From Globodera rostochiensis (Eukaryota > Nematoda > Chromadorea > Rhabditida > Heteroderidae): a stretch of 64,000 nucleotides of DNA. Position 1 is the stretch's first letter. Every line of letters starts with the position of its first letter. Where the stretch lies: NCBI GenBank assembly GCA_018350325.1, contig JAEVLN010000007.1, forward strand, positions 4,182,124-4,246,123. Direction: 5' to 3'. The notes beneath the pieces were generated by a model. The model was given only the letters and a program-made list of their open reading frames with translations. It had not been told where the DNA came from and ran no database searches. Positions 9,001 through 64,000 of the stretch are shown here, piece after piece. Made by a program: the position numbers and the translations under genes.

Positions 9001-9093
9001 GACGAATTATTGCTTGGAGTTTGCGCGCCACTAATATGGATTCGGTCGAATTAGGGAAAAGCTTAAACAGAGTAAAGAATAGGCAAAATGTTA

Positions 9094-9165
9094 GCCCCGG
9101 GTGGGACTCGAACCCACGTCCTCCACCCAATCCGTGGGCAGCTCTTCCAACTGAGCTACCGGGGC
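9094..9165 (-). tRNA. tRNA-like sequence 1 (anticodon arm irregular)
   Basis: On the minus strand the acceptor (GCCCCGG with CCGGGGC), D arm (GCTC/GAGC with AGTTGGAA loop) and T arm (GTGGG TTCGAGT CCCAC) are perfect. The anticodon arm is not: the 22 bases between positions 26 and 49 do not give a 5-bp stem with a 7-base loop having U33. Internal A and B box sequences are intact. It is probably a tRNA-derived repeat or pseudogene, with no assignable anticodon. Confidence 0.5.
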
Positions 9166-9378
9166 GTCCCATTAGCCTTCTTCTTTATGGATGATCTTTT
9201 GCCCCCGCCCTAGGCGTTTTAACCGTTCACTTCCAACCAGCGGAACACACAAATCCTTACAGCTCCATCCTCAACGGGACCGGTCCCTCGGTCCATCGAT
9301 CGATCACACATCGATCGCTTCGCTGGCGACGGTTGGGCAACCATCCGGTGCTACCAGTAAAGAATAGGCAAAATGTTA

Positions 9379-9449
9379 GCCCCGGGTGGGACTCGAACCC
9401 ACGTCCTCACCCAATCCGTGGGCAGCTCTTCCAACTGAGCTACCGGGGC
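9379..9449 (-). tRNA. tRNA-like sequence 2 (one base shorter)
   Basis: Duplicate of the unit at 9094-9165, lacking one C in the region between anticodon stem and variable loop. Acceptor, D and T arms are unchanged. The same doubt about the anticodon loop applies; it lies inside the second half of the A-B-A insertion. Confidence 0.45.
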
Positions 9450-17158: not shown

Positions 17159-20100
17159 CGCTTCCGGTCTGAATCCCACCCGTCCGAATTTCACTCGTCC
17201 GAATCCCACCCGTCCGAATCCCACTCGTCCGAATCCCACTCGTCCGAATCCCACCCGTCCGAATCCCACTCGTCCGAATCCCCTCGTCCGAATCCCACCC
17301 GTCCGAATCCCACTCGTCCGAATCCCACCCGTCCGAATCCCACTCGTCCGAATCCCCTCGTCCGAATCCCACCCGTCCGAATCCCACTCGTCCGAATCCC
17401 ACCCGTCCGAATCCCACTCGTCCGAATCCCCTCGTCCGAATCCCACCCGTCCGAATCCCACTCGTCCGAATCCCACCCGTCCGAATCCCACTCGTCCGAA
17501 TCCCACCCGTCCGAATCCCACTCGTCCGAATCCCACCCGTCCGAATCCCACTCGTCCGAATCCCACCCGTCCGAATCCCACTCGTCCGAATCCCACCCGT
17601 CCGAATCCCACTCGTCCGAATCCCACCCGTCCGAATTTCACTCGTCCGAATCCCACCCGTCCGAATCCCACCCGTCCGAATCCCACCCGTCCGAATCCCA
17701 CCCGTCCGAATTTCACTCGTCCGAATCCCACCCGTCCGAATCCCACCCGTCCGAATCCCACCCGTCCGAATCCCACTCGTCCGAATCCCACTCGTCCGAA
17801 TCCCACTCGTCCGAATCCCACTCGTCCGAATCCCACTCGTCCGAATCCCACTCGTCCGAATCCCACTCGTCCGAATCCCACTCGTCCGAATCCCACCCGT
17901 CCGAATCCCACCCGTCCGAATCCCACTCGTCCGAATCCCACTCGTCCGAATCCCACCCGTCCGAATCCCACTCGTCCGAATCCCACTCGTCCGAATCCCA
18001 CTCGTCCGAATCCCACTCGTCCGAATCCCACTCGTCCGAATCCCACTCGTCCGAATCCCACTCGTCCGAATACTCGTCCGAATCCCACTCGTCCGAATCC
18101 CACCCGTCCGAATCCCACCCGTCCGAATCCCACCCGTCCGAATCCCACCCGTCCGAATCCCACTCGTCCGAATACTCGTCCGAATCCCACTCGTCCGAAT
18201 CCCACTCGTCCGAATCCCACCCGTCCGAATTTCACTCGTCCGAATCCCACCCGTCCGAATCCCACTCGTCCGAATCCCACCCGTCCGAATTTCACTCGTC
18301 CGAATCCCACCCGTCCGAATCCCACTCGTCCGAATCCCACTCGTCCGAATCCCACCCGTCCGAATTTCACTCGTCCGAATCCCACCCGTCCGAATCCCAC
18401 TCGTCCGAATCCCACCCGTCCGAATTTCACTCGTCCGAATCCCACCCGTCCGAATCCCACCCGTCCGAATCCCACTCGTCCGAATCCCACCCGTCCGAAT
18501 TTCACTCGTCCGAATCCCACCCGTCCGAATCCCACTCGTCCGAATCCCACTCGTCCGAATCCCACTCGTCCGAATACTCGTCCGAATCCCACTCGTCCGA
18601 ATCCCACCCGTCCGAATCCCACCCGTCCGAATCCCACTCGTCCGAATCCCACCCGTCCGAATTTCACTCGTCCGAATCCCACCCGTCCGAATCCCACTCG
18701 TCCGAATCCCACTCGTCCGAATCCCACTCGTCCGAATCCCACCCGTCCGAATCCCACCCGTCCGAATTTCACTCGTCCGAATCCCACCCGTCCGAATCCC
18801 ACTCGTCCGAATCCCACTCGTCCGAATCCCACTCGTCCGAATCCCACCCGTCCGAATCCCACTCGTCCGAATCCCACTCGTCCGAATCCCACCCGTCCGA
18901 ATCCCACTCGTCCGAATCCCACCCGTCCGAATCCCACTCGTCCGAATCCCACTCGTCCGAATCCCACTCGTCCGAATCCCACCCGTCCGAATCCCACTCG
19001 TCCGAATCCCACTCGTCCGAATCCCACCCGTCCGAATCCCACTCGTCCGAATCCCACCCGTCCGAATCCCACCCGTCCGAATTTCACTCGTCCGAATCCC
19101 ACCCGTCCGAATCCCACTCGTCCGAATCCCACTCGTCCGAATCCCACTCGTCCGAATCCCACCCGTCCGAATTTCACTCGTCCGAATCCCACCCGTCCGA
19201 ATCCCACTCGTCCGAATCCCACTCGTCCGAATCCCACCCGTCCGAATTTCACTCGTCCGAATCCCACCCGTCCGAATCCCACTCGTCCGAATCCCACTCG
19301 TCCGAATCCCACCCGTCCGAATTTCACTCGTCCGAATCCCACTCGTCCGAATCCCACCCATCCGAATCCCACTCGTCCGAATCCCACCCGTCCGAATCCC
19401 ACCCGTCCGAATCCCACCCGTCCGAATCCCACTCGTCCGAATCCCACTCGTCCGAATCCCACCCGTCCGAATACTCGTCCGAATCCCACCCGTCCGAATT
19501 TCACTCGTCCGAAATCCCACCCGTCCGAATCCCACTCGTCCGAATCCCACTCGTCCGAATCCCACCCGTCCGAATACTCGTCCGAATCCCACTCGTCCGA
19601 ATCCCACTCGTCCGAATCCCACTCGTCCGAATCCCACCCGTCCGAATACTCGTCCGAATCCCACTCTTCCGAATCCCACTCGTCCGAATCCCACCCGTCC
19701 GAATCCCACTCGTCCGAATTTCACTCGTCCGAATCCCACTCGTCCGAATCCCACTCGTCCGAATCCCACCCGTCCGAATACTCGTCCGAATCCCACTCGT
19801 CCGAATCCCACCCGTCCGAATACTCGTCCGAATCCCACTCGTCCGAATCCCACCCGTCCGAATACTCGTCCGAATCCCACTCGTCCGAATCCCACACGTC
19901 CGAATCCCACTCGTCCGAATCCCACCCGTCCGAATCCCACTCGTCCGAATCCCACTCGTCCGAATCCCACCCGTCCGAATACTCGTCCGAATCCCACCCG
20001 TCCGAATTTCACTCGTCCGAATCCCACCCGTCCGACTCCCACTCGTCGTCCGAATCCCACGTCCGAATCCCACTCGTCCGAATCCCCTCGTCCGAATCCC

Positions 20101-23100
20101 ACCCGTCCGAATCCCACGTCCGAATCCCACCCGTCCGAATCCCACTCGTCCGAATCCCACCCGTCCGAATCCCACGTCCGAATCCCACCCGTCCGAATCC
20201 CACTCGTCCGAATCCCACCCGTCCGAATCCCACCCGAAACTCGTCCGAATCCCACCCGTCCGAATTTCACTCGTCCGAATCCCACCCGTCCATCCCACTC
20301 GTCCGAATCCCACCCGTCCGAATCCCACTCGTCCGATCCCACCCGTCCGTCCCACTCGTCCGAATCCCACTCGTCCCGAATTCCCACCCGTCCGAATACT
20401 CGTCCGACCCACCCGTCCGAATTTCACTCGTCCGAATCCCACCCGTCCGAATCCCACTCGTTCCGTCCCACCCGTCCGAATCCCACTCGTCCGAATCCCC
20501 TCGTCCGAATCCCACCGTCCGAACCTACCCGTCCGAATCCCACCGTCGAATCCACCCGGTCCGAATCCCACCGTCCGAATCACTCGTCCGAATCCCACCG
20601 TCCGAATCCCACTCGTCCGAATCCCACTCGTCCGAATCCTCGTCCGAATCCCACCCGTCCGAATTCACACTCGTCCGAATCCAACCGTCCGAATCCCCCG
20701 TCCGAATACTCGTCCGATCCCACCCGTCCGAATTTCACTCGTCCGAATCCCACCCCCGAATCCCACTCGTCCGAATCCCACCCGTCCGAATCCCACTCGT
20801 CCGAATCCCACCCCCGAATCCCACTCGTCCGAATCCCACTCGTCCGAATCCACCCGTCCGAATTACTCGTCAATCCCACCCGTCCGAATTCACTCGTCCG
20901 AATCCCACCCGTCCGAATCCCACTCGTCCACCACCCGTCCGAATCCCACTCGTCCGAATCCCCTCGTCCGAATCCCACTCGTCCGAATCCCACCCGTCCG
21001 AATACTCGTCCGAATCCCACCCGTCCGAATTTCACTCGTCCGAATCCCACCCGTCCGAATCCCACTCGTCCGAATCCCACTCGTCCGAATCCCACCCGTC
21101 CGAAGAATTCGTCCGAATCCACCCGTCCGAATTTCACTCGTCCGAATCCCACCCGTCCGAATACTCCCGAATCCAACCCGTCCGAATTTCCACTCGTCCG
21201 AATCCCACCCGTCCGAATCCCACTTCCGAATACCACCTCGTCCTCCCACCCGTCCGAATACTCGTCCGAATCCCACCCGTCCGAATTTCACTCGTCCGAA
21301 TCCCACCCGTCCGAATACTCGTCCGAATCCCACCCGTCCGAATTTCACTCGTCCGAATCCCACCCGTCCGAATCCCACTCGTCCGAATCCCACCCGTCCG
21401 AATCCCACTCGTCCGAATCCCACCCGTCCGAATCCCACTCGTCCGAATCCCACTCGTCCGAATCCCACCCGTCCGAATACTCGTCCGAATCCCACCCGTC
21501 CGAATTTCACTCGTCCGAATCCCACCCGTCCGAATCCCACTCGTCCGAATCCCACCCGTCCGAATCCCACCACTCGTCCGAACCACCCGTCCGAATCCAC
21601 CCGTCCGAATACTCGTCCGAATCCCACCCGTCCGAATTTCTCGTCCGAATCCCACCCGTCCGAATCCCACTCGTCCGAATCCACCCGTCCGAATCCCACG
21701 TCCGAATCCCACCCGTCCGAATCCCCGTCCGAATCCCACTCGTCCGAATCCCACCCGTCCGAATACTCGTCCGAATCCCACCCGTCCGAATTTCACTCGT
21801 CCGAATCCCACCCGTCCGAATCCCACTCGTCCGAATCCCACCCGTCCGAATCCCACTCGTCCGAATCCCCCCGTCCGAATCCCACCCGTCCGAATCCCAC
21901 TCGTCCGAATCCCACCCGTCCGAATCCCACCCGTCCGAATCCCACCCGTCCGAATCCCACTCGTCCGAATCCCACTCGTCCGAATCCCACTCGTCCGAAT
22001 CCCACTCGTCCGAATTTCACTCGTCCGAATCCCACCCGTCCGAATCCCACTCGTCCGAATCCCACTCGTCCGAATCCCACCCGTCCGAATACTCGTCCGA
22101 ATCCCACCCGTCCGAATTTCACTCGTCCGAATCCCACCCGTCCGAATCCCACTCGTCCGAATCCCACCCGTCCGAATCCCACTCGTCCGAATCCCCTCGT
22201 CCGAATCCCACCCGTCCGAATCCCACTCGTCCGAATCCCACCCGTCCGAATACTCGTCCGAATCCCACCCGTCCGAATTTCACTCGTCCGAATCCCACCC
22301 GTCCGAATCCCACTCGTCCGAATCCCACCCGTCCGAATCCCACTCGTCCGAATCCCCTCGTCCGAATCCCACCCGTCCGAATCCCACTCGTCCGAATCCC
22401 ACCCGTCCGAATCCCACTCGTCCGAATCCCACCCGTCCGAATCCCACTCGTCCGAATCCCACCCGTCCGAATCCCACTCGTCCGAATCCCACCCGTCCGA
22501 ATTTCACTCGTCCGAATCCCACCCGTCCGAATTTCACTCGTCCGAATCCCCTCGAACCGAATCCCACCCGTCCGAATCCCACTCGTCCGAATCCCACCCG
22601 TCCGAATCCCACTCGTCCGAATCCCACCCGTCCGAATCCCACTCGTCCGAATCCCACTCGTCCGAATCCCACCCGTCCGAATACTCGTCCGAATCCCACC
22701 CGTCCGAATCCCACTCGTCCGAATCCCACCCGTCCGAATCCCACCCGTCCGAATCCCACCCGTCCGAATTTCACTCGTCCGAATCCCACTCGTCCGAATC
22801 CCACCCGTCCGAATCCCACTCGTCCGAATCCCACTCGTCCGAATCCCACCCGTCCGAATCCCACCCGTCCGAATACTCGTCCGAATCCCACCCGTCCGAA
22901 TTTCACTCGTCCGAATCCCACCCGTCCGAATCCCACTCGTCCGAATCCCACCCGTCCGAATCCCACTCGTCCGAATCCCACCCGTCCGAATCCCACTCGT
23001 CCGAATCCCACTCGTCCGAATCCCACCCGTCCGAATACTCGTCCGAATCCCACCCGTCCGAATTTCACTCGTCCGAATCCCACCCGTCCGAATCCCACTC

Positions 23101-24239
23101 GTCCGAATCCCACCCGTCCGAATCCCACCCGTCCGAATCCCACCCGTCCGAATTTCACTCGTCCGAATCCCCTCGTCCGAATCCCACCCGTCCGAATCCC
23201 ACTCGTCCGAATCCCACCCGTCCGAATCCCACTCGTCCGAATCCCACCCGTCCGAATCCCACTCGTCCGAATCCCACTCGTCCGAATCCCACTCGTCCGA
23301 ATCCCACCCGTCCGAATTTCACTCGTCCGAATCCCACCCGTCCGAATTTCACTCGTCCGAATCCCACCCGTCCGAATCCCACTCGTCCGAATCCCACTCG
23401 TCCGAATCCCACCCGTCCGAATCCCACCCGTCCGAATCCCACCCGTCCGAATCCCACTCGTCCGAATCCCACTCAAGCCAAAAGTGTCCCGAATCCCACC
23501 CCAGCAAAAAAAAGTCCGAATCCCACTCGTCCGAATCCCACCAAGTCAAATCCGAATCCCACTACAGCTAAAAGTGTCTCGAATCCCACCTCTACTAAAA
23601 ACAATCAAAAATGCTCATTACTTTACAAAAATGAAAATGATGCTGCTTAAGCTTTTGGCCATCCTTCCGCAAGATCAAAAAATTTGAGTCGAACTTTTTT
23701 CCTACATTATTTTTCTCAAAGCAAACCAAGCAAATATTTATGATATGATTCAAAAGCTTACATTGGGTAGAAACTATCTTCAAGCAAAGGCTAAGCGCTC
23801 TGACAAACTACAAAAGAGTTGTGGCCCGAAAAGCTGGAATTTTTTTAAAATTCGTTGCGACATAGGTAACTTCTTTAGGGGCTTTCCAATCGCTTAGCCT
23901 TTGCTTGTTGATAGCTTTTCCTCATTATAAGCTTTCGAATGGTATCAAAAATGCTGGATTTAGTTCGCTTTGCAAAAAAGTTAGTCGAAGTGGGTCCTGC
24001 GTTCGTCTTCAACAAGCCTTGATTTGAAATTCGAATTAGTGTTATTCTATTCTACTTTGATCGCAAACTCAATACCAAACAAATTATGCCACCAAGTAAA
24101 ATAAAAATTTTTTTTTTAATTTGGTGGGATTCGGGACATTTTTGGGTGTGGTGGGATTCGGAACTTTTTGGCTTGGGTGGGATTCGGACCTTTTTTGGCT
24201 TGGGTGGGATTCGGACGAGTGGGATTCGGACCGGTAGCC
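17159..24239. mobile_element. 7.1-kb foldback-type TIR element filled by a 15-bp minisatellite
   Basis: The left end CGCTTCCGGTCTGAATCC and the reverse complement of the right end, GGCTACCGGTCCGAATCC, match at nearly every position. They sit exactly inside a perfect 8-bp duplication GTTGGATG (17151-17158 and 24240-24247). Left of centre is a 6.3-kb array of TIR-derived 15-mers. Then comes a unique core (about 23600-24115) with inner inverted repeats (CAAGCAAAGGCTAAGCG near 23782 and its complement near 23892). The right arm is short (24117-24239) with the same unit in opposite orientation. There is no transposase. Confidence 0.82.
17170..23560. repeat. 15-bp minisatellite (CCCACYCGTCCGAAT), over 400 copies
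   Basis: Nearly uninterrupted CGTCCGAATCCCACY units, with CCC/CTC and TTTCA variants and occasional 12-bp units. Because 15 is divisible by three and the unit lacks stops, giant open frames (over 2,000 codons) exist on both strands; they are artefacts. Units between about 20030 and 21250 are much more irregular. At the right end units diverge (CCCACTACAGCTAAAAGTGT). Confidence 0.97.
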
Positions 24240-57362: not shown

Positions 57363-58835
57363 CTACCTGAACACAACCGCGATTTTTGTATTTGTGTGAT
57401 TATGAGACCCTCCCCCCCAGCGTTCATGCATGCAGCACGCATTTGCATGCCCGCCTGCTATAAAAGCGAGTTGTATAATCAGATGCCCACAATCATTGAC
57501 AGCCGATTGGTAATGCCGCTCTTTTGCTCCATGGACGTTGTCGGCTGGCAACTTACCTGCCAAGCTCCTTCGGATGGGATCCATGAGTCCCAATTTTTCC
57601 ATCATCTCAATTCCGAGCAAGTTCTTTGATCCTTTCTTGGATACAAAGAAGCGTCCAGTTTGTGTCCGTCCTCCAATCGAGAATGTCGCCAGACCTTTAC
57701 CAAGAAAGGTGCGAGTGGATCCGTCAGGGTATTTGGCTCGTTCATTGCAACGGCTCACCCGCGGAGATCCGATTCGTCGATGTGCTTCCTCGCAGAGCAC
57801 TGTACTTTCAGTGCCCGAATCGATCACAAAATCCACGTTCTTCCCATTCATTTCAATCGGGATCTCGATCAGACGGTGTTTCTGGTTGACCGAATTGACC
57901 AGAAAAACTCCTCCCAGCCTAACTGAGTTGGCTGCCTTCTCTTCCCTTATCCCATTTCCATTCTTCTTCAGCCAGGCCTGATGTGGCGCACACATTCTTT
58001 CCACGTGCCCTGTCGTTTTGCATTTACGGCAAACCGTTTTGATGTGACGGCACCGCCTGCATGAATGTTCACTGCCGCAGCGCCAACAATTGTTTTGCGA
58101 TCGGCTCCACTGGCTTTTCCTCGATGAGTTGCTTCCACTGGAAGAATTCTCCGTGTTCTTCCGCTTTCTCTGCGGTTTCGATTTGACCGCTAACACGTTT
58201 CGCACAACGGACGGCTGTTCGATGGCCTTGGCTTCGGCGATGGTTGACAAATACATCTTGAGGTCATCAACAATGCCCTCGTATTTGACCTTGTCGCCAT
58301 CCGCTGCCAACTTAGCCAGAATTCGCGATCGAAGAGCGGCGTCACTCGGTGATTTCAACGCTATCAACAGCATCAAGCTATTGAATTGCTCCTCCTCCAA
58401 CTTCTTAAAAGTGCTAAAGTCCTCGTCGTCCTGCTTCCTTGCGCGGAGGCACTCATATCGGTCAATCCAAACAGACTGAGGTTTGCCAAACAAACCGTTG
58501 AGCTGCTCCATTGTCTGCGCAAAAGTGAATTCCGTGACCTTCTTCGGCAGGCAGGACTTGCTGTATTCCGCATACGCGTCCTCGCCCAACTTGGTCATCA
58601 GCAACTTGACTTTCAGCTCGTCTGAAAGGTTCGGTGCAGAACAGTCCACTGCAAAGTTGAATCGGTCGAGCCAATCCTCAACTTTCCTTCCCCGCTGCTC
58701 GCTGAGCTCAAAACATTCAATGTTTGGTAGCGACGGCAGCGGAGGTGTGATGAGTGCAGGATTTTGCTGTTGGTTTGTCAACAGTTGTTGAAGGACTTGC
58801 GTCAGTTGCTGGATAACTGCTTCTGTCATCTCCAA
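57363..58835 (-). mobile_element. retrotransposon gag-aspartic protease ORF, lacking reverse transcriptase
   Basis: 490 codons. Gln-rich N-terminus, a gag-like helical region (residues about 40-210, WLDRFNFAV, LLMTKLGEDAYAEY), a basic linker, Cys/His zinc knuckles at about 250-282 (CWRCGSEHSCRRC, CRKCKTTGHVERMC) and a retropepsin-type protease with DSGTESTV at about 339-346 and LLGIEMM further on. Frame content becomes doubtful after about position 57555, where LAG is followed by a perfect GTAAGT donor on the minus strand. No reverse transcriptase, integrase or paired LTRs are visible, so it is a truncated LTR element or a captured gag-pro gene. Confidence 0.75.
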
Positions 58836-59430
58836 TTTGTCGAATATAAAACCACACCAAGTGGACTTTCTTCCCCCCTGGGGAGTACTCGTTTTATATG
58901 TCGTTCACCACTTTTTGTTAGCAGCACCTAGCTTACTAACTAGTGGGTTGCGCGTGGATGAACTGTTTTGTGTCGCCTGGACAGCAAAGCAGTAGCGCGA
59001 TGATTTCCTTTGCAAGTGCTTCAAGCTGCTTGCTAAGAACGGACAATAGTGGTAGCGCCAAGATTTCCACCAATTTCACAAAATCCGAAGTTGTGCGGTT
59101 GTGCTGTTGTTCTCTTCCTGGAACAACCAAAACGATTGGACACAACCCACAATTTGATTTGCAGTTCGTATGCAGCACGGGCGTCGCCAATTGTTACGAC
59201 CCCAAGTCCGAAGTAAATAGAGAATATTTATTCGGAGAGAAATGGAGGGGTCAAACAAGGATGGGAATCAAATATATTGATTGGGTCAAGTGGGAATGCA
59301 ACGAAATGTGGGGAATGATAGGAAGTGAATGAGGAAGGGTCAAGGGCGGGTATTTATGGACGTAAATGGGTGTGACAATCAATAGGGACCAATTGGGGAT
59401 TGGGTCATCTGAGTACCGACCGAACATTTA
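58836..59430. other. leader or LTR-like region upstream of the gag-pro ORF
   Basis: Non-coding. The stretch from TGTTACGACCCCAAG (about 59193) to about 59425 could be a solo 5' LTR remnant, but no second copy exists in the window. Confidence 0.35.
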
Positions 59431-60835
59431 GTATTTTCAGAAAATTAATGGAGGCAATGGAAAATAAGTCGACATATTTTTTGTTTGCTAATAAAATTGA
59501 ATATTTGACATAATTGTAAAAAAATCACGATTACAATGCAAATTTTGTGTTGAAATTTCACAGTTTTTTAATATTTTCAGAAAATTAATGGAGGCAATGG
59601 GAAATAAGTCGACATATTTTTTGTTTGCTAATAAAATTGAATATTTGACATAATTGTAAAAAAATCACGATTACAATGCAAATTTTGTGTTGAAATTTCA
59701 CAGTTTTTTAGTATTTTCAGAAAATTAATGGAGGCAATGGGAAATAAGTCGACATATTTTTTGTTTGCTAATAAAATTGAATATTTGACATAATTGTAAA
59801 AAAATCACGATTACAATGCAAATTTTGTGTTGAAATTTTACAGTTTTTTAGTATTTTCAGAAAATTAATGGAGGCAATGGGAAATAAGTCGACATATTTT
59901 TTGTTTGCTAATAAAATTGAATATTTGACATAATTGTAAAAAAATCACGATTACAATGCAAATTTTGTGTTGAAATTTTACAGTTTTTAGTATTTTCAGA
60001 AAATTAATGGAGGCAATGGGAAATAAGCCGACATATTTTTTGTTTGCTAATAAAATTGAATATTTGACATAATTGTAAAAAAATCACGATTACAATGCAA
60101 ATTTTGTGTTGAAATTTTACAGTTTTTTAGTATTTTCAGAAAATTAATGGAGGCAATGGGAAATAAGTCGACATATTTTTTGTTTGCTAATAAAATTGAA
60201 TATTTGACATAATTGTAAAAAAATCACGATTACAATGCAAATTTTGTGTTGAAATTTCACAGTTATTTAGTATTTTCAGAAAATTAATGGAGGCAATGGG
60301 AAATAAGTCGACATATTTTTTGTTTGCTAATAAAATTGAATATTTGACATAATTGTAAAAAAATCACGATTACAATGCAAATTTTGTGTTGAAATTTCAC
60401 AGTTTTTTAATATTTTCAGAAAATTAATGGAGGCAATGGGAAATAAGTCGACATATTTTTGTTTGCTAATAAAATTGAATATTTGACATAATTGTAAAAA
60501 AATCACGATTACAATGCAAATTTTGTGTTGAAATTTTACAGTTTTTTAGTATTTTCAGAAAATTAATGGAGGCAATGGGAAATAAGTCGACATATTTTTT
60601 GTTTGCTAATAAAATTGAATATTTGACATAATTGTAAAAAAATCACGATTACAATGCAAATTTTGTGTTGAAATTTTACAGTTTTTTAGTATTTTCAGAA
60701 AATTAATGGAGGCAATGGGAAATAAGTCGACATATTTTTTGTTTGCTAATAAAATTGAATATTTGACATAATTGTAAAAAAATCACGATTACAATGCAAA
60801 TTTTGTGTTGAAATTTCACAGTTATTTAGTATTTT
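59431..60835. repeat. 140-bp satellite, left block, about 10 copies
   Basis: The unit begins GTATTTTCAGAAAATTAATG and contains GGAGGCAATGGGAAATAAGT; period 140 (some 139). It is AT-rich and nearly invariant. The block stops inside a unit after TTTAGTATTTT, where the bacterial sequence begins. Confidence 0.96.
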
Positions 60836-61099
60836 GCCTAGCTCAAAACCGAAATTATTTAAAGCAAACTCAAAATAAGTACTACCACAAAATTGTGGCT
60901 TACCAAAGAAATTGCCCTTTTGCACCTTCCCTTGAAGGTTAAATTCTTCTAAAGACTTCCAAGGATTCCGAAAAGAGGCACTACTTACCCCAAGTTTTAC
61001 ACCAAGCCTAGACCTAAAGTCATCTTTTTCTGCATAAGCTGTATGCATAGTGCATATCAAAATACGCATTAATAATCCTTTGTTTATTTTAAACCGCAT
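60836..61099 (-). pseudogene. truncated outer-membrane beta-barrel protein gene
   Basis: 88 codons from the start MRFKINKGLLMRILICTMHT are collinear with the N-terminus of the complete gene at 61433-62242 (same signal peptide, LGVSSASF, KSLEEFNLQG, FFGKPQFCGSTYFE). At 60836 the coding sequence stops and satellite DNA continues; the open frame reading on to 60746 is chimeric. About 180 C-terminal residues are missing. The upstream region is also duplicated between the two genes. Confidence 0.85.
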
Positions 61100-61432
61100 T
61101 ATTTTTCAGTTGTTTAATTTATATAATAATCTACTTATGGGCTAGTTAATAGCTGGACAGACCTAACAATAGCTGATTAGCGACTTGGACCTAAGTGAAA
61201 CAGCATCGTACCTAAAAAAATTACTCCCTGCGTATGCCTAGGTCATGGTTGCCTGCTTATTAGGTTACTGTGGCCTTGTTTGTGTTTTTAATTTAATACA
61301 ACAATATATAAAAATAGTTATGAGATTGTATGATTGCTATAAAATACGTGCTGTAATTGGTTATAAGGAAAGGTCTTGTAGAAATGTGGGTTAGGTAGCG
61401 CATGTTATAGACCTATGCTGCTATTGCCCCAC

Positions 61433-62242
61433 CTAATAACCCCACCTAAAACTGTAACCTATGGTAAGCGTAAAATAGTAGTTTTTCATAAGGCTATCAT
61501 CACACTTATCACTGTTAAGTTCCTGATAGGCACTGAGTGTATCCATTATAGAACCAATTGAGGTATTCATTATAGAACCAATTGAGGAAGCTCTGCTAAA
61601 AGTTTGACGTAATATACCATTGATGCCGATTCCCCCCCTTGCATCTAGCGACAATCCACAAGCCCATTCATAGCCTGTACCTAGGAAAATCCCCCCATTT
61701 CCTCCCTGCAAAAGCCTTTTTATAGGATTAGGACAATCTATTTTCTTTTCCGAAGTACCATACCCTTTGACCATCCAACTCGTTTTAGGTATTATATCTA
61801 TAGAGATACCAATAGCTATTTTCCATATACCTTGATCCACTTTCCAACCCAATGGATAGATACAGAGCCCTAATGGCATTGATATCGTATGCTGTATGAT
61901 TTTTAAATAAGCGGATTGCGTGCCTGACTGCTTGGTTACCTTTAAAATATCTCCCTGAGTCAAATAACCTATGCCTATCTCACAACCGAAATATTTATTA
62001 TAATTAGCCTCAAAATAAGTGCTACCACAAAATTTTGGCTTACCAAAGAAATCGCCCTTTTGCACCTCCCCTTGAAGGTTGAATTCTTCTAAAGACTTCC
62101 GAGGATTCCAAAAAGAGGCGCTACTTACGCCAAGTTTTGCACCAAGCCTACACATCATACCGCCATCTTTTTCTGCATAAGCTGTATGCATAGTGCATAC
62201 CAAAATATGCATTAATAATCCTTTGTTTATTTTAAACCGCAT
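61433..62242 (-). CDS. outer-membrane beta-barrel protein, Bacteroidetes type
   Basis: 269 residues. Signal peptide MRFKINKGLLMHILVCTMHT with cleavage probably after AYA. The mature part has alternating-residue beta strands (AKLGVSSASFW, FGCEIGIGYLT, WKIAIGISIDII, CGLSLDARGGIGI) and ends YYFTLTIGYSFRWGY, an aromatic C-terminus typical of barrels recognised by the BAM machinery. It resembles small porin/PorT-like barrels of endosymbionts. No Shine-Dalgarno site is seen, usual in Bacteroidetes. The frame is intact, but it is unlikely to be expressed inside a nematode satellite. Confidence 0.72.
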   Translation of the reverse strand: MRFKINKGLLMHILVCTMHTAYAEKDGGMMCRLGAKLGVSSASFWNPRKSLEEFNLQGEVQKGDFFGKPKFCGSTYFEANYNKYFGCEIGIGYLTQGDILKVTKQSGTQSAYLKIIQHTISMPLGLCIYPLGWKVDQGIWKIAIGISIDIIPKTSWMVKGYGTSEKKIDCPNPIKRLLQGGNGGIFLGTGYEWACGLSLDARGGIGINGILRQTFSRASSIGSIMNTSIGSIMDTLSAYQELNSDKCDDSLMKNYYFTLTIGYSFRWGY

Positions 62243-62571
62243 TATTTTTCAGTTGTTTAAGTTATATAGTAATCTCTACTATGGGCTACTTATAATAGAG
62301 GAATAAGCGCACAAATAACATTAGTAGTTTGGGTCTAATATATGATATAATCGTATATAAAAATATTACTTTTTGCTTAGTTCTAGGTCACTGCTGCGTT
62401 CTTTGCACACGATTGATTAATATGCATGAAGGCTGTGTAGGCATGTTACAGATAACTTTTAAGATAAAAGTAACGATTTGGTCAAGGTAATCCTGTTATT
62501 GGCTTATTCAATGTTACCAGTGATACGATTTCTAAAATACTGCAGAAAACGCACCACGATAAAGAATTAAA

Positions 62572-62658
62572 ACAATTCTGTTTAAAGCAAATAAGGAAAT
62601 AGTTCCTTAGAGCCCCCGAAGGGGATGACTTCTATTTCCGCGCTTTAAACAGAAATTT
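62572..62658. other. long imperfect stem-loop in the bacterial insert
   Basis: AATTCTGTTTAAAGC near 62572 pairs with GCTTTAAACAGAAATT near 62641, with inner pairing GGAAATAG/CTATTTCC and CCCCCGAAGGGG at the tip. It could be a terminator, a small structured RNA or an insertion-sequence end. Confidence 0.55.
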
Positions 62659-62699
62659 TGAAGTTTTTTTTGCTGTATTGCTTGATTTTTTGGCTAAAA

Positions 62700-62996
62700 A
62701 AAATTCTTTATCCTTGAAAGATCTAAAAAAACGCATCTTTTCAACCTTCCAATTGAATAACAAAACTCGGCATGGCTTTCTGGATCTGTGCAGCTGTGGG
62801 TAAGTTGGGTTAATGTATTTGCTAATGTCTTATACTGGTTGTGGAAGGGTTCCGCATTACCCGTTAATACCAGGGCTGAATGGATACCAATTTGAGGCGC
62901 CTAGAATGTCTGTGTGAAACGTCTCTAAGAGTGATGTAATGGATTTATATTTTCAAGGAAGCATTTCCCTCATTGTCATTTAGCGATGATAAAACG
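62700..62996. other. bacterial intergenic or decayed DNA
   Basis: No intact ORF. It contains AAAATTCTTTATCCTTG, partly complementary to CACGATAAAGAATT at 62557, extending the inverted structure. Possibly a decayed insertion sequence. Confidence 0.35.
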
Positions 62997-63479
62997 TTAG
63001 TCAGGGCTATGTTCTATATAATGGAGCATGGTTGCGCCACCGGAAAGTAGATCTAGTCGGTATGCTTCCACCCAATTGACCCATATATAGGCGGTATGTT
63101 CCTTATTTAAGGTAATAGCGCCATCGATTAATGCATCGGGAGCTATTTCTGTCTTAAAAAGATGCAAGATTAAGTCTTGCTTTGGAGACCTTCGAACATA
63201 GAAAGTTTTAAGGAAATCTATTTTCTCCTCCTCAATCAAGATTCCCGTTTCTTCTCTAACCTCTCTGATTATAGCTTGCGTAAGTGTCTCTCCCGCTTCC
63301 ACTTTTCCACCAGGCATACTCCATTTGTCGCCTTCAGGAGCTATGGACACTCTTTTTAGTAGTAAAAATTTGTCCTCATAGAAGATATGGCAAACCACTA
63401 CTTCTGAAAATGGGTGGAATTCCTCTATTAGCGTAGGAGAAAATGCAAACATCCCTCCGTCAAAAGGTATTATAGCCAT
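62997..63479 (-). CDS. Nudix hydrolase
   Basis: 160 residues. The Nudix box GGKVEAGETLTQAIIREVREE followed by TGI (residues about 57-79) contains every consensus position GX5EX7REUXEEXGU, including the Glu residues that bind the metal. Preceding strands VVVCHIFYEDKFLLLKR and W-x-MPGG fit the fold. Family members hydrolyse nucleoside diphosphates linked to another moiety (for example oxidised dNTPs); the substrate cannot be predicted. Single exon, intact, on the same strand as the barrel genes. Confidence 0.88.
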   Translation of the reverse strand: MAIIPFDGGMFAFSPTLIEEFHPFSEVVVCHIFYEDKFLLLKRVSIAPEGDKWSMPGGKVEAGETLTQAIIREVREETGILIEEEKIDFLKTFYVRRSPKQDLILHLFKTEIAPDALIDGAITLNKEHTAYIWVNWVEAYRLDLLSGGATMLHYIEHSPD

Positions 63480-63650
63480 CGATGCTTAAAAATTTAACAA
63501 GTGTTAGCGCAAATAGGACCCAATTTTATTTTTAGGGTTGCTGCTACCGTATACCAAGGTAACTACTTTATGCCAAATTAATTAGCAAATTTCTGGATGG
63601 TAAATTTTGTAAAGCGTATTTTTTGTCGTATGGGCATTCAAGGAGGTTGG

Positions 63651-64000
63651 TTTTAATGGAGGCAATGGGAAATAAGTCGACATATTTTTTGTTTGCTAAT
63701 AAAATTGAATATTTGACATAATTGTAAAAAAATCACGATTACAATGCAAATTTTGTGTTGAAATTTTACAGTTTTTTAGTATTTTCAGAAAATTAATGGA
63801 GGCAATGGGAAATAAGTCGACATATTTTTTGTTTGCTAATAAAATTGAATATTTGACATAATTGTAAAAAAATCACGATTACAATGCAAATTTTGTGTTG
63901 AAATTTTACAGTTTTTTAGTATTTTCAGAAAATTAATGGAGGCAATGGGAAATAAGTCGACATATTTTTTGTTTGCTAATAAAATTGAATATTTGACATA
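63651..64000. repeat. 140-bp satellite, right block
   Basis: The same unit and orientation as 59431-60835 resumes mid-unit at TAATGGAGGCAATGGG and continues to the window edge (about 2.5 copies). Confidence 0.95.

What the first reader, a model, noticed from the sequence alone, without database searches (positions are those of the whole stretch)
60836..63650. Endosymbiont DNA embedded inside a nematode satellite
Intact Nudix and outer-membrane barrel genes plus a truncated barrel copy sit between two blocks of the same 140-bp satellite. Seen: single-exon bacterial ORFs, and satellite in the same orientation on both sides. Known: cyst nematodes carry Cardinium. Inference: nuclear transfer of symbiont DNA into heterochromatic satellite.
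Basis: partly seen in the sequence, partly recalled or inferred. Interest (0 to 1): 0.95.

Follow-up and report, generated by a model that had tools for sequence, protein, structure and literature searches.

The report
Cardinium DNA inside a nematode satellite
A 2.8-kb piece of DNA from the bacterial symbiont Cardinium appears to be spliced into a satellite repeat on a nematode chromosome: a known kind of event with a donor rarely documented, still to be confirmed on raw reads because it lies next to a gap in the assembly.

Summary
A 2,817-bp block (60836-63652) interrupts a 140-bp satellite, same strand on both sides, with 7 bp of one monomer missing and no target-site duplication. It carries an open 269-aa barrel-like gene, an 87-codon 5' fragment of a second copy, an open Nudix gene and a long hairpin, and was found once in the 92.6-Mb assembly. 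The barrel's donor group is now identified: a profile of both copies gave one hit (2,210 candidates scored from 5.8 billion proteins), a 'Candidatus Cardinium hertigii' outer-membrane barrel protein, E 5e-58, 43% identity over 98%. The Nudix gene names no donor; its top named loci are Chlamydiae. Satellite relatives lie on four other scaffolds, so it is host DNA. Best reading: a symbiont fragment captured by end-joining repair in a nuclear satellite. Main caveat: the right satellite block is 348 bp and then meets 6,076 N, so a few chimeric reads at a contig end could have made it; no reads could be examined. Symbiont-to-host transfer is well known, and Cardinium loci in ants were reported in 2026; I found no nematode case.

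The parts
59427..60835 (+). Left block of the 140-bp satellite, about 10 monomers, ending inside a monomer
   Evidence: TRF; monomer register; related sequence on scaffolds C56, C11, C2 and C8
60836..63652 (.). Inserted bacterial block, 2,817 bp, found once in the assembly
   Evidence: (GC 0.37 against 0.24 for the left satellite block)
60838..61099 (-). 5' fragment (87 codons) of a second barrel gene, cut off at the left junction
   Evidence: 46% identical to the Cardinium protein P0121 over 89 columns
61433..62242 (-). Outer-membrane-barrel-like gene with an open frame, 269 aa; the start may be Met11 at 62212
   Evidence: only hit of the two-copy profile is a Cardinium hertigii barrel protein, E 5.3e-58; 43% identity; low-confidence model with eight long strands
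62576..62654 (.). Long imperfect inverted repeat (hairpin) between the Nudix and barrel genes; terminator-like or a small repeat element, function inferred only
   Evidence: 62562-62668 folded: z-score -4.15 (minus) and -4.52 (plus), 0 of 200 shuffles as stable on either strand; arms located
62997..63479 (-). Nudix hydrolase gene with an open frame, 160 aa, and a complete Nudix box
   Evidence: PF00293 E 5.5e-20; alignment; the Nudix box consensus itself is recalled
63653..64000 (+). Right block of the same satellite, 2.5 monomers, followed at once by 6,076 N

Best explanation
A fragment of a Cardinium symbiont chromosome was captured into a double-strand break inside a 140-bp satellite monomer of the nematode's nuclear genome and sealed by end joining, losing 7 bp of the monomer. 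Shown: the arrangement in the assembly, the spread of satellite relatives over other scaffolds, and Cardinium kinship of the barrel genes. Inferred: nuclear location in the living animal, the repair mechanism, and the Cardinium origin of the Nudix stretch (by linkage only). The genes have bacterial layout (single frames, a possible bacterial ribosome site before Met11) and most likely do nothing in the host; the open frames point to a young insertion.
For: Barrel origin: single hit P0121 'Candidatus Cardinium hertigii', E 5.3e-58, 98% coverage, 43% identity; the truncated copy 46% over 89 columns. Satellite is host DNA: 42 of 49 listed matches lie on four other scaffolds at 68-76% identity (the tool calls its counts lower bounds). 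Same strand with 7 bp missing: by a simple calculation a random rejoin would come this close in about 5% of cases. No target-site duplication. Left flank is eukaryotic: a gag/aspartyl-protease retroelement ORF at 57363-58835. 3 of 3 inserted frames lack internal stops.
Against: The insert plus right satellite (3,165 bp) ends at a 6,076-base run of N, where assembly support is often thin. On the left, the one other monomer with the variant pair of the interrupted monomer is followed by a monomer with two variants; the first full monomer on the right has neither, so the order of variants is not continued. The Nudix gene has no Cardinium relative in the rows seen: top protein hit 37% over 91% (120 of 177 hits listed, most unnamed), top named loci Rhabdochlamydia 39% and Simkania 35% (80 of at least 446 kept), and 37 of 37 plasmid records with a relative are not Cardinium. 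Whether the assembly holds other symbiont DNA could not be tested.
Confidence: 0.72

Rival explanations
1. Assembly or library artefact: Cardinium DNA from an infected sample was ligated to satellite fragments in chimeric reads, and the assembler extended a contig end with them.
For: The insert and right block lie directly before a 6,076-base run of N. The two full right monomers are identical to the consensus and to each other. Cardinium does infect some G. rostochiensis: 1 of 10 populations in one survey, listed from Bolivia (PMC9918034, passages).
Against: It needs two chimeric joints on one strand, within 7 bp of register, about 5% by chance even if both joints form. The block is flanked on both sides by the same satellite subfamily (98-100%), while the other listed matches in the genome are only 68-76% alike.
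Confidence: 0.18
2. Nuclear insertion of bacterial DNA, but from another Bacteroidota symbiont, or from a Cardinium that itself holds a chlamydial-type Nudix gene acquired from a co-infecting bacterium.
For: The top named loci for the Nudix are Rhabdochlamydia and Simkania, and the Rhabdochlamydia and Simkania genomes rank first and second of the 4 genomes compared. PMC12842512 (abstract, sections 5 and 6 and passages) describes horizontally acquired genes in nematode Cardinium.
Against: The only barrel relative found is Cardinium; nothing seen inside the insert marks a second joint.
Confidence: 0.08
3. The satellite is part of the symbiont genome and the contig is a misplaced bacterial piece.
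For: None found.
Against: Satellite relatives lie on scaffolds C56, C11, C2 and C8 as well, and the left array is continuous with sequence carrying a retroelement ORF.
Confidence: 0.02

Closest known systems
Nuclear Wolbachia insertions in animals (for example Brugia malayi PMC3849323, Glossina PMC3998919; search listing and abstract starts only)
   Same: Symbiont DNA fragment within a host chromosome
   Different: The donor here is Cardinium (Bacteroidota), and the piece is small, found once, and sits inside a satellite monomer
Cardinium-attributed transfers in ants (PMC13320244, passages read: 9 of 497 loci)
   Same: Same donor genus, host genome locus
   Different: Insect host (Temnothorax and close relatives are named); here a nematode
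   Same: 43% identity over 98% of the barrel
   Different: Too distant to be the donor strain itself; its gene neighbourhood could not be inspected

Membership tests
Endosymbiont-to-host lateral transfer | Sequence of symbiont origin | tested here: met
   Barrel genes: single hit to Cardinium hertigii, E 5.3e-58. Nudix gene: not assigned
Endosymbiont-to-host lateral transfer | Host nuclear DNA on both sides in one contig | tested here: met
   Satellite on both sides, related sequence on four other scaffolds; assembly level only
Endosymbiont-to-host lateral transfer | Junctions spanned by single reads and host-level depth | not testable with these tools
   No reads available; 6,076 N start 348 bp right of the insert
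Transposon-mediated insertion | Target-site duplication | tested here: not met
   7 bp missing; no direct repeat of 4-12 bp at the junctions
Cardinium outer-membrane barrel family | Homology to a Cardinium barrel protein over the full length | tested here: met
Cardinium outer-membrane barrel family | Beta-barrel fold | tested here: inconclusive
   Model pLDDT 46.9 with eight strands of 11-22 residues; the leading PDB hits are outer-membrane barrels, but 0 of 225 reach E 0.001; no Pfam hit at E 1, NCBIfam only a chance-level hit
Nudix hydrolase | Nudix domain with complete catalytic box | tested here: met
   PF00293 72.2 bits over a cut-off of 21.1; box read, consensus recalled. None of the 25 NCBIfam models listed passes its cut-off, so no specific function is assigned

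The most novel reading that the evidence does not exclude
The first nuclear insertion of Cardinium DNA in a nematode, and a molecular fossil of infection in a line that may carry no Cardinium today, placed in a satellite where repair capture of symbiont DNA is tolerated; the open Nudix frame may even be expressed by the host.
Probability: 0.35. Interest if true: 0.68.

Novelty: new member of a known kind. Interest (0 to 1): 0.55.

Why it matters
A 2025 review of Cardinium says that transfers between the symbiont and host genomes had not been reported (PMC12342168, passage). A 2023 survey of nematode Cardinium warned that such transfers could mislead PCR screens (PMC9918034, passage). If real, this locus is a concrete nematode case. 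It would give a junction marker for past infection in uninfected lines, a caution for PCR-based diagnosis, and one example of a satellite taking up symbiont DNA.

Tried and rejected
Single-sequence searches of the barrel found no relative: proteins (0 of 287 candidates at E 0.001), genome contigs (0 of 19 stretches), viral contigs (0 of 2), plasmids, phages. Only the two-copy profile reached the Cardinium protein. The insert as DNA against plasmids gave 4 records with short chance-level matches.

Attempts to reach Cardinium among the unnamed prokaryote genomes failed. Barrel in the class of G001: 1 of 391, E 9.5e-4, chance level for so many genomes. Ankyrin scan to spot Cardinium kin: 110 of 392 genomes rang, none evidently Cardinium. 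G719, picked from it, led to a family of 1 genome (barrel, 0 of 1) and an order of 13 (pCher transposase, 0 of 13). Order of G601: 5 of 22 for the transposase, best-scoring 38%. Phylum draw: 3 of 395 at E 1e-60, best-scoring 51%. Order of G426: 16 of 393 for the barrel at E 0.05 or below, best 0.0037, chance level. None of these draws is known to contain Cardinium, so they say nothing against the assignment.

Three Cardinium plasmids were found through the pCher relaxase. The first 50 kb of each (pCher, pcBtQ1, D. farinae plasmid p_B; the last is 125 kb) share no significant DNA or protein with the insert; a 29-bp resemblance beside IS110 copies (E 0.12) was taken as chance. Bacteroidota-type promoters (motif recalled) were not found. 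dN 0.113 and dS 0.105 between the barrel copies over 87 codons show no constraint and were not used as evidence of host function. Rfam gave only two matches in 59000-64000, both below their gathering scores. Papers that looked relevant by their terms but held no Cardinium-to-host case in the passages shown: PMC7050614, PMC5778671, PMC6513877.

Full report
Observation. The satellite unit is 140 bp: about ten copies at 59427-60835 and 2.5 copies at 63653-64000, on the same strand. The insert is 60836-63652, 2,817 bp. At the junction the left satellite stops at monomer offset 127 and the right one resumes at 135, so 7 bp are missing and nothing is duplicated. If satellite ends were rejoined at random, same strand and register within 7 bp would occur in about 5% of cases (simple calculation). 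The block was found once: 1 match in the 92.6-Mb own assembly at DNA level, and only its own two barrel copies at protein level.

What the insert holds. All frames are on the minus strand. Barrel 61433-62242, 269 aa, with a possible bacterial ribosome site before Met11 (own reading of the output). Truncated copy 60838-61099, 87 codons, 79% identical in protein; the two copies and their upstream DNA are 88% identical over 321 columns. Nudix 62997-63479, 160 aa (PF00293), with a complete Nudix box (consensus recalled). A hairpin at 62576-62654 folds far better than shuffles on both strands (0 of 200 each).

Origin. A single-sequence search of the barrel against 5.8 billion proteins scored nothing at E 0.001. 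A profile of both copies gave exactly one hit at E 10 or below among 2,210 candidates: P0121, named 'Candidatus Cardinium hertigii' and 'Outer membrane protein beta-barrel', E 5.3e-58, 43% identity over 98%; the truncated copy is 46% identical to it over 89 columns. Its contig is 1,193,042 bp, which fits the genome of cHgTN10 from Heterodera glycines, listed with one contig and 1193 (kb, as I read the columns) in a table passage of PMC12342168; PMC6025951, read whole, reports a 1.2-Mb contig. That link is an inference from length. P0121 itself has only a weak Pfam barrel match below the cut-off (E 0.023). A structure model of the barrel is of low confidence (pLDDT 46.9) but shows eight long strands, and its leading PDB matches are outer-membrane barrels, none significant (0 of 225 at E 0.001). 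The Nudix gene is not so clear: 177 proteins at E 0.001 or below, of which 120 were listed, the top one 37% identical over 91%; the top named loci are Rhabdochlamydia 39% and Simkania 35% (the best 80 of at least 446 relatives were kept); 37 plasmid records have a relative, none of them Cardinium. It is assigned to the same donor by linkage only.

Host side. The satellite has relatives on scaffolds C56, C11, C2 and C8 (42 of 49 listed matches, 68-76% identity; C2 and C8 one match each), so it is nuclear and not bacterial. To the left stands a retroelement ORF with a gag-type aspartyl protease (57363-58835). The window lies at G000:C67:4182124-4246123. The species was not verified: 92.6 Mb fits the G. 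rostochiensis assemblies of 92-101 Mb in PMC8359618 (passages), but the scaffold count differs (80 contigs here against 173 and 189 scaffolds).

The main weakness. Right after the window comes a run of 6,076 N; the tool says that withheld stretches also read N, and I take this one for an assembly gap. The 15.7 kb of sequence beyond it that I read holds no copy of this satellite. So insert and right satellite form the last 3.2 kb before the gap. The two full right monomers match the consensus exactly and do not continue the one comparable variant order of the left block. A chimeric-read artefact therefore cannot be dismissed; I give it 0.18. The search for bacterial 16S in the assembly was asked seven times and never answered.

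Mechanism (inferred). No target-site duplication, a small deletion and a donor fragment cut in mid-gene at the left end are what end-joining capture of free DNA gives; a transposase is not indicated. The open frames (3 of 3) suggest a young insertion, unless selection keeps them, which nothing here shows. The barrel would have no obvious purpose in an animal cell; the Nudix could be active if expressed, which is speculation.

Known and new. Symbiont-to-host transfer is well established for Wolbachia (search listing and abstract starts). For Cardinium, a 2025 review states that none had been reported (PMC12342168, passage), but a 2026 study of ant genomes attributes 9 of 497 loci to Cardinium (PMC13320244, passages). 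In nematodes the possibility was raised in 2023 (PMC9918034, passages). My searches of open-access papers showed no nematode case in the listings and passages that I saw; most subscription papers and bioRxiv preprints are not covered. I file it as a new member of a known kind.

Noticed in passing
window 64000 onwards (G000:C67:4246124-4252199): Run of 6,076 N directly after the window; no 140-bp satellite found in the 15.7 kb of sequence read beyond it.
   Followed up: partly
window 60836-62420: The two barrel copies share near-identical leader and upstream DNA but diverge in the coding part (dN 0.113, dS 0.105 over 87 codons), as in a duplicated surface-protein family.
   Followed up: partly
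window 62576-62654: Long imperfect palindrome, stable on both strands; not matched in the 50-kb stretches of three Cardinium plasmids compared.
   Followed up: partly
window 57363-58835: Retroelement gag-like ORF (DUF7083, gag-asp_proteas) on the minus strand close to the satellite.
   Followed up: no
window 17167-23474: 6.3-kb array of a 15-bp repeat (430 copies) overlapping ORFs of over 2,000 codons on the plus strand and up to 1,180 on the minus strand.
   Followed up: no
window 9093-9165 and 9378-9449: Two tRNA genes called tRNA-Asn with anticodon att by ARAGORN, 212 bp apart on the minus strand.
   Followed up: no
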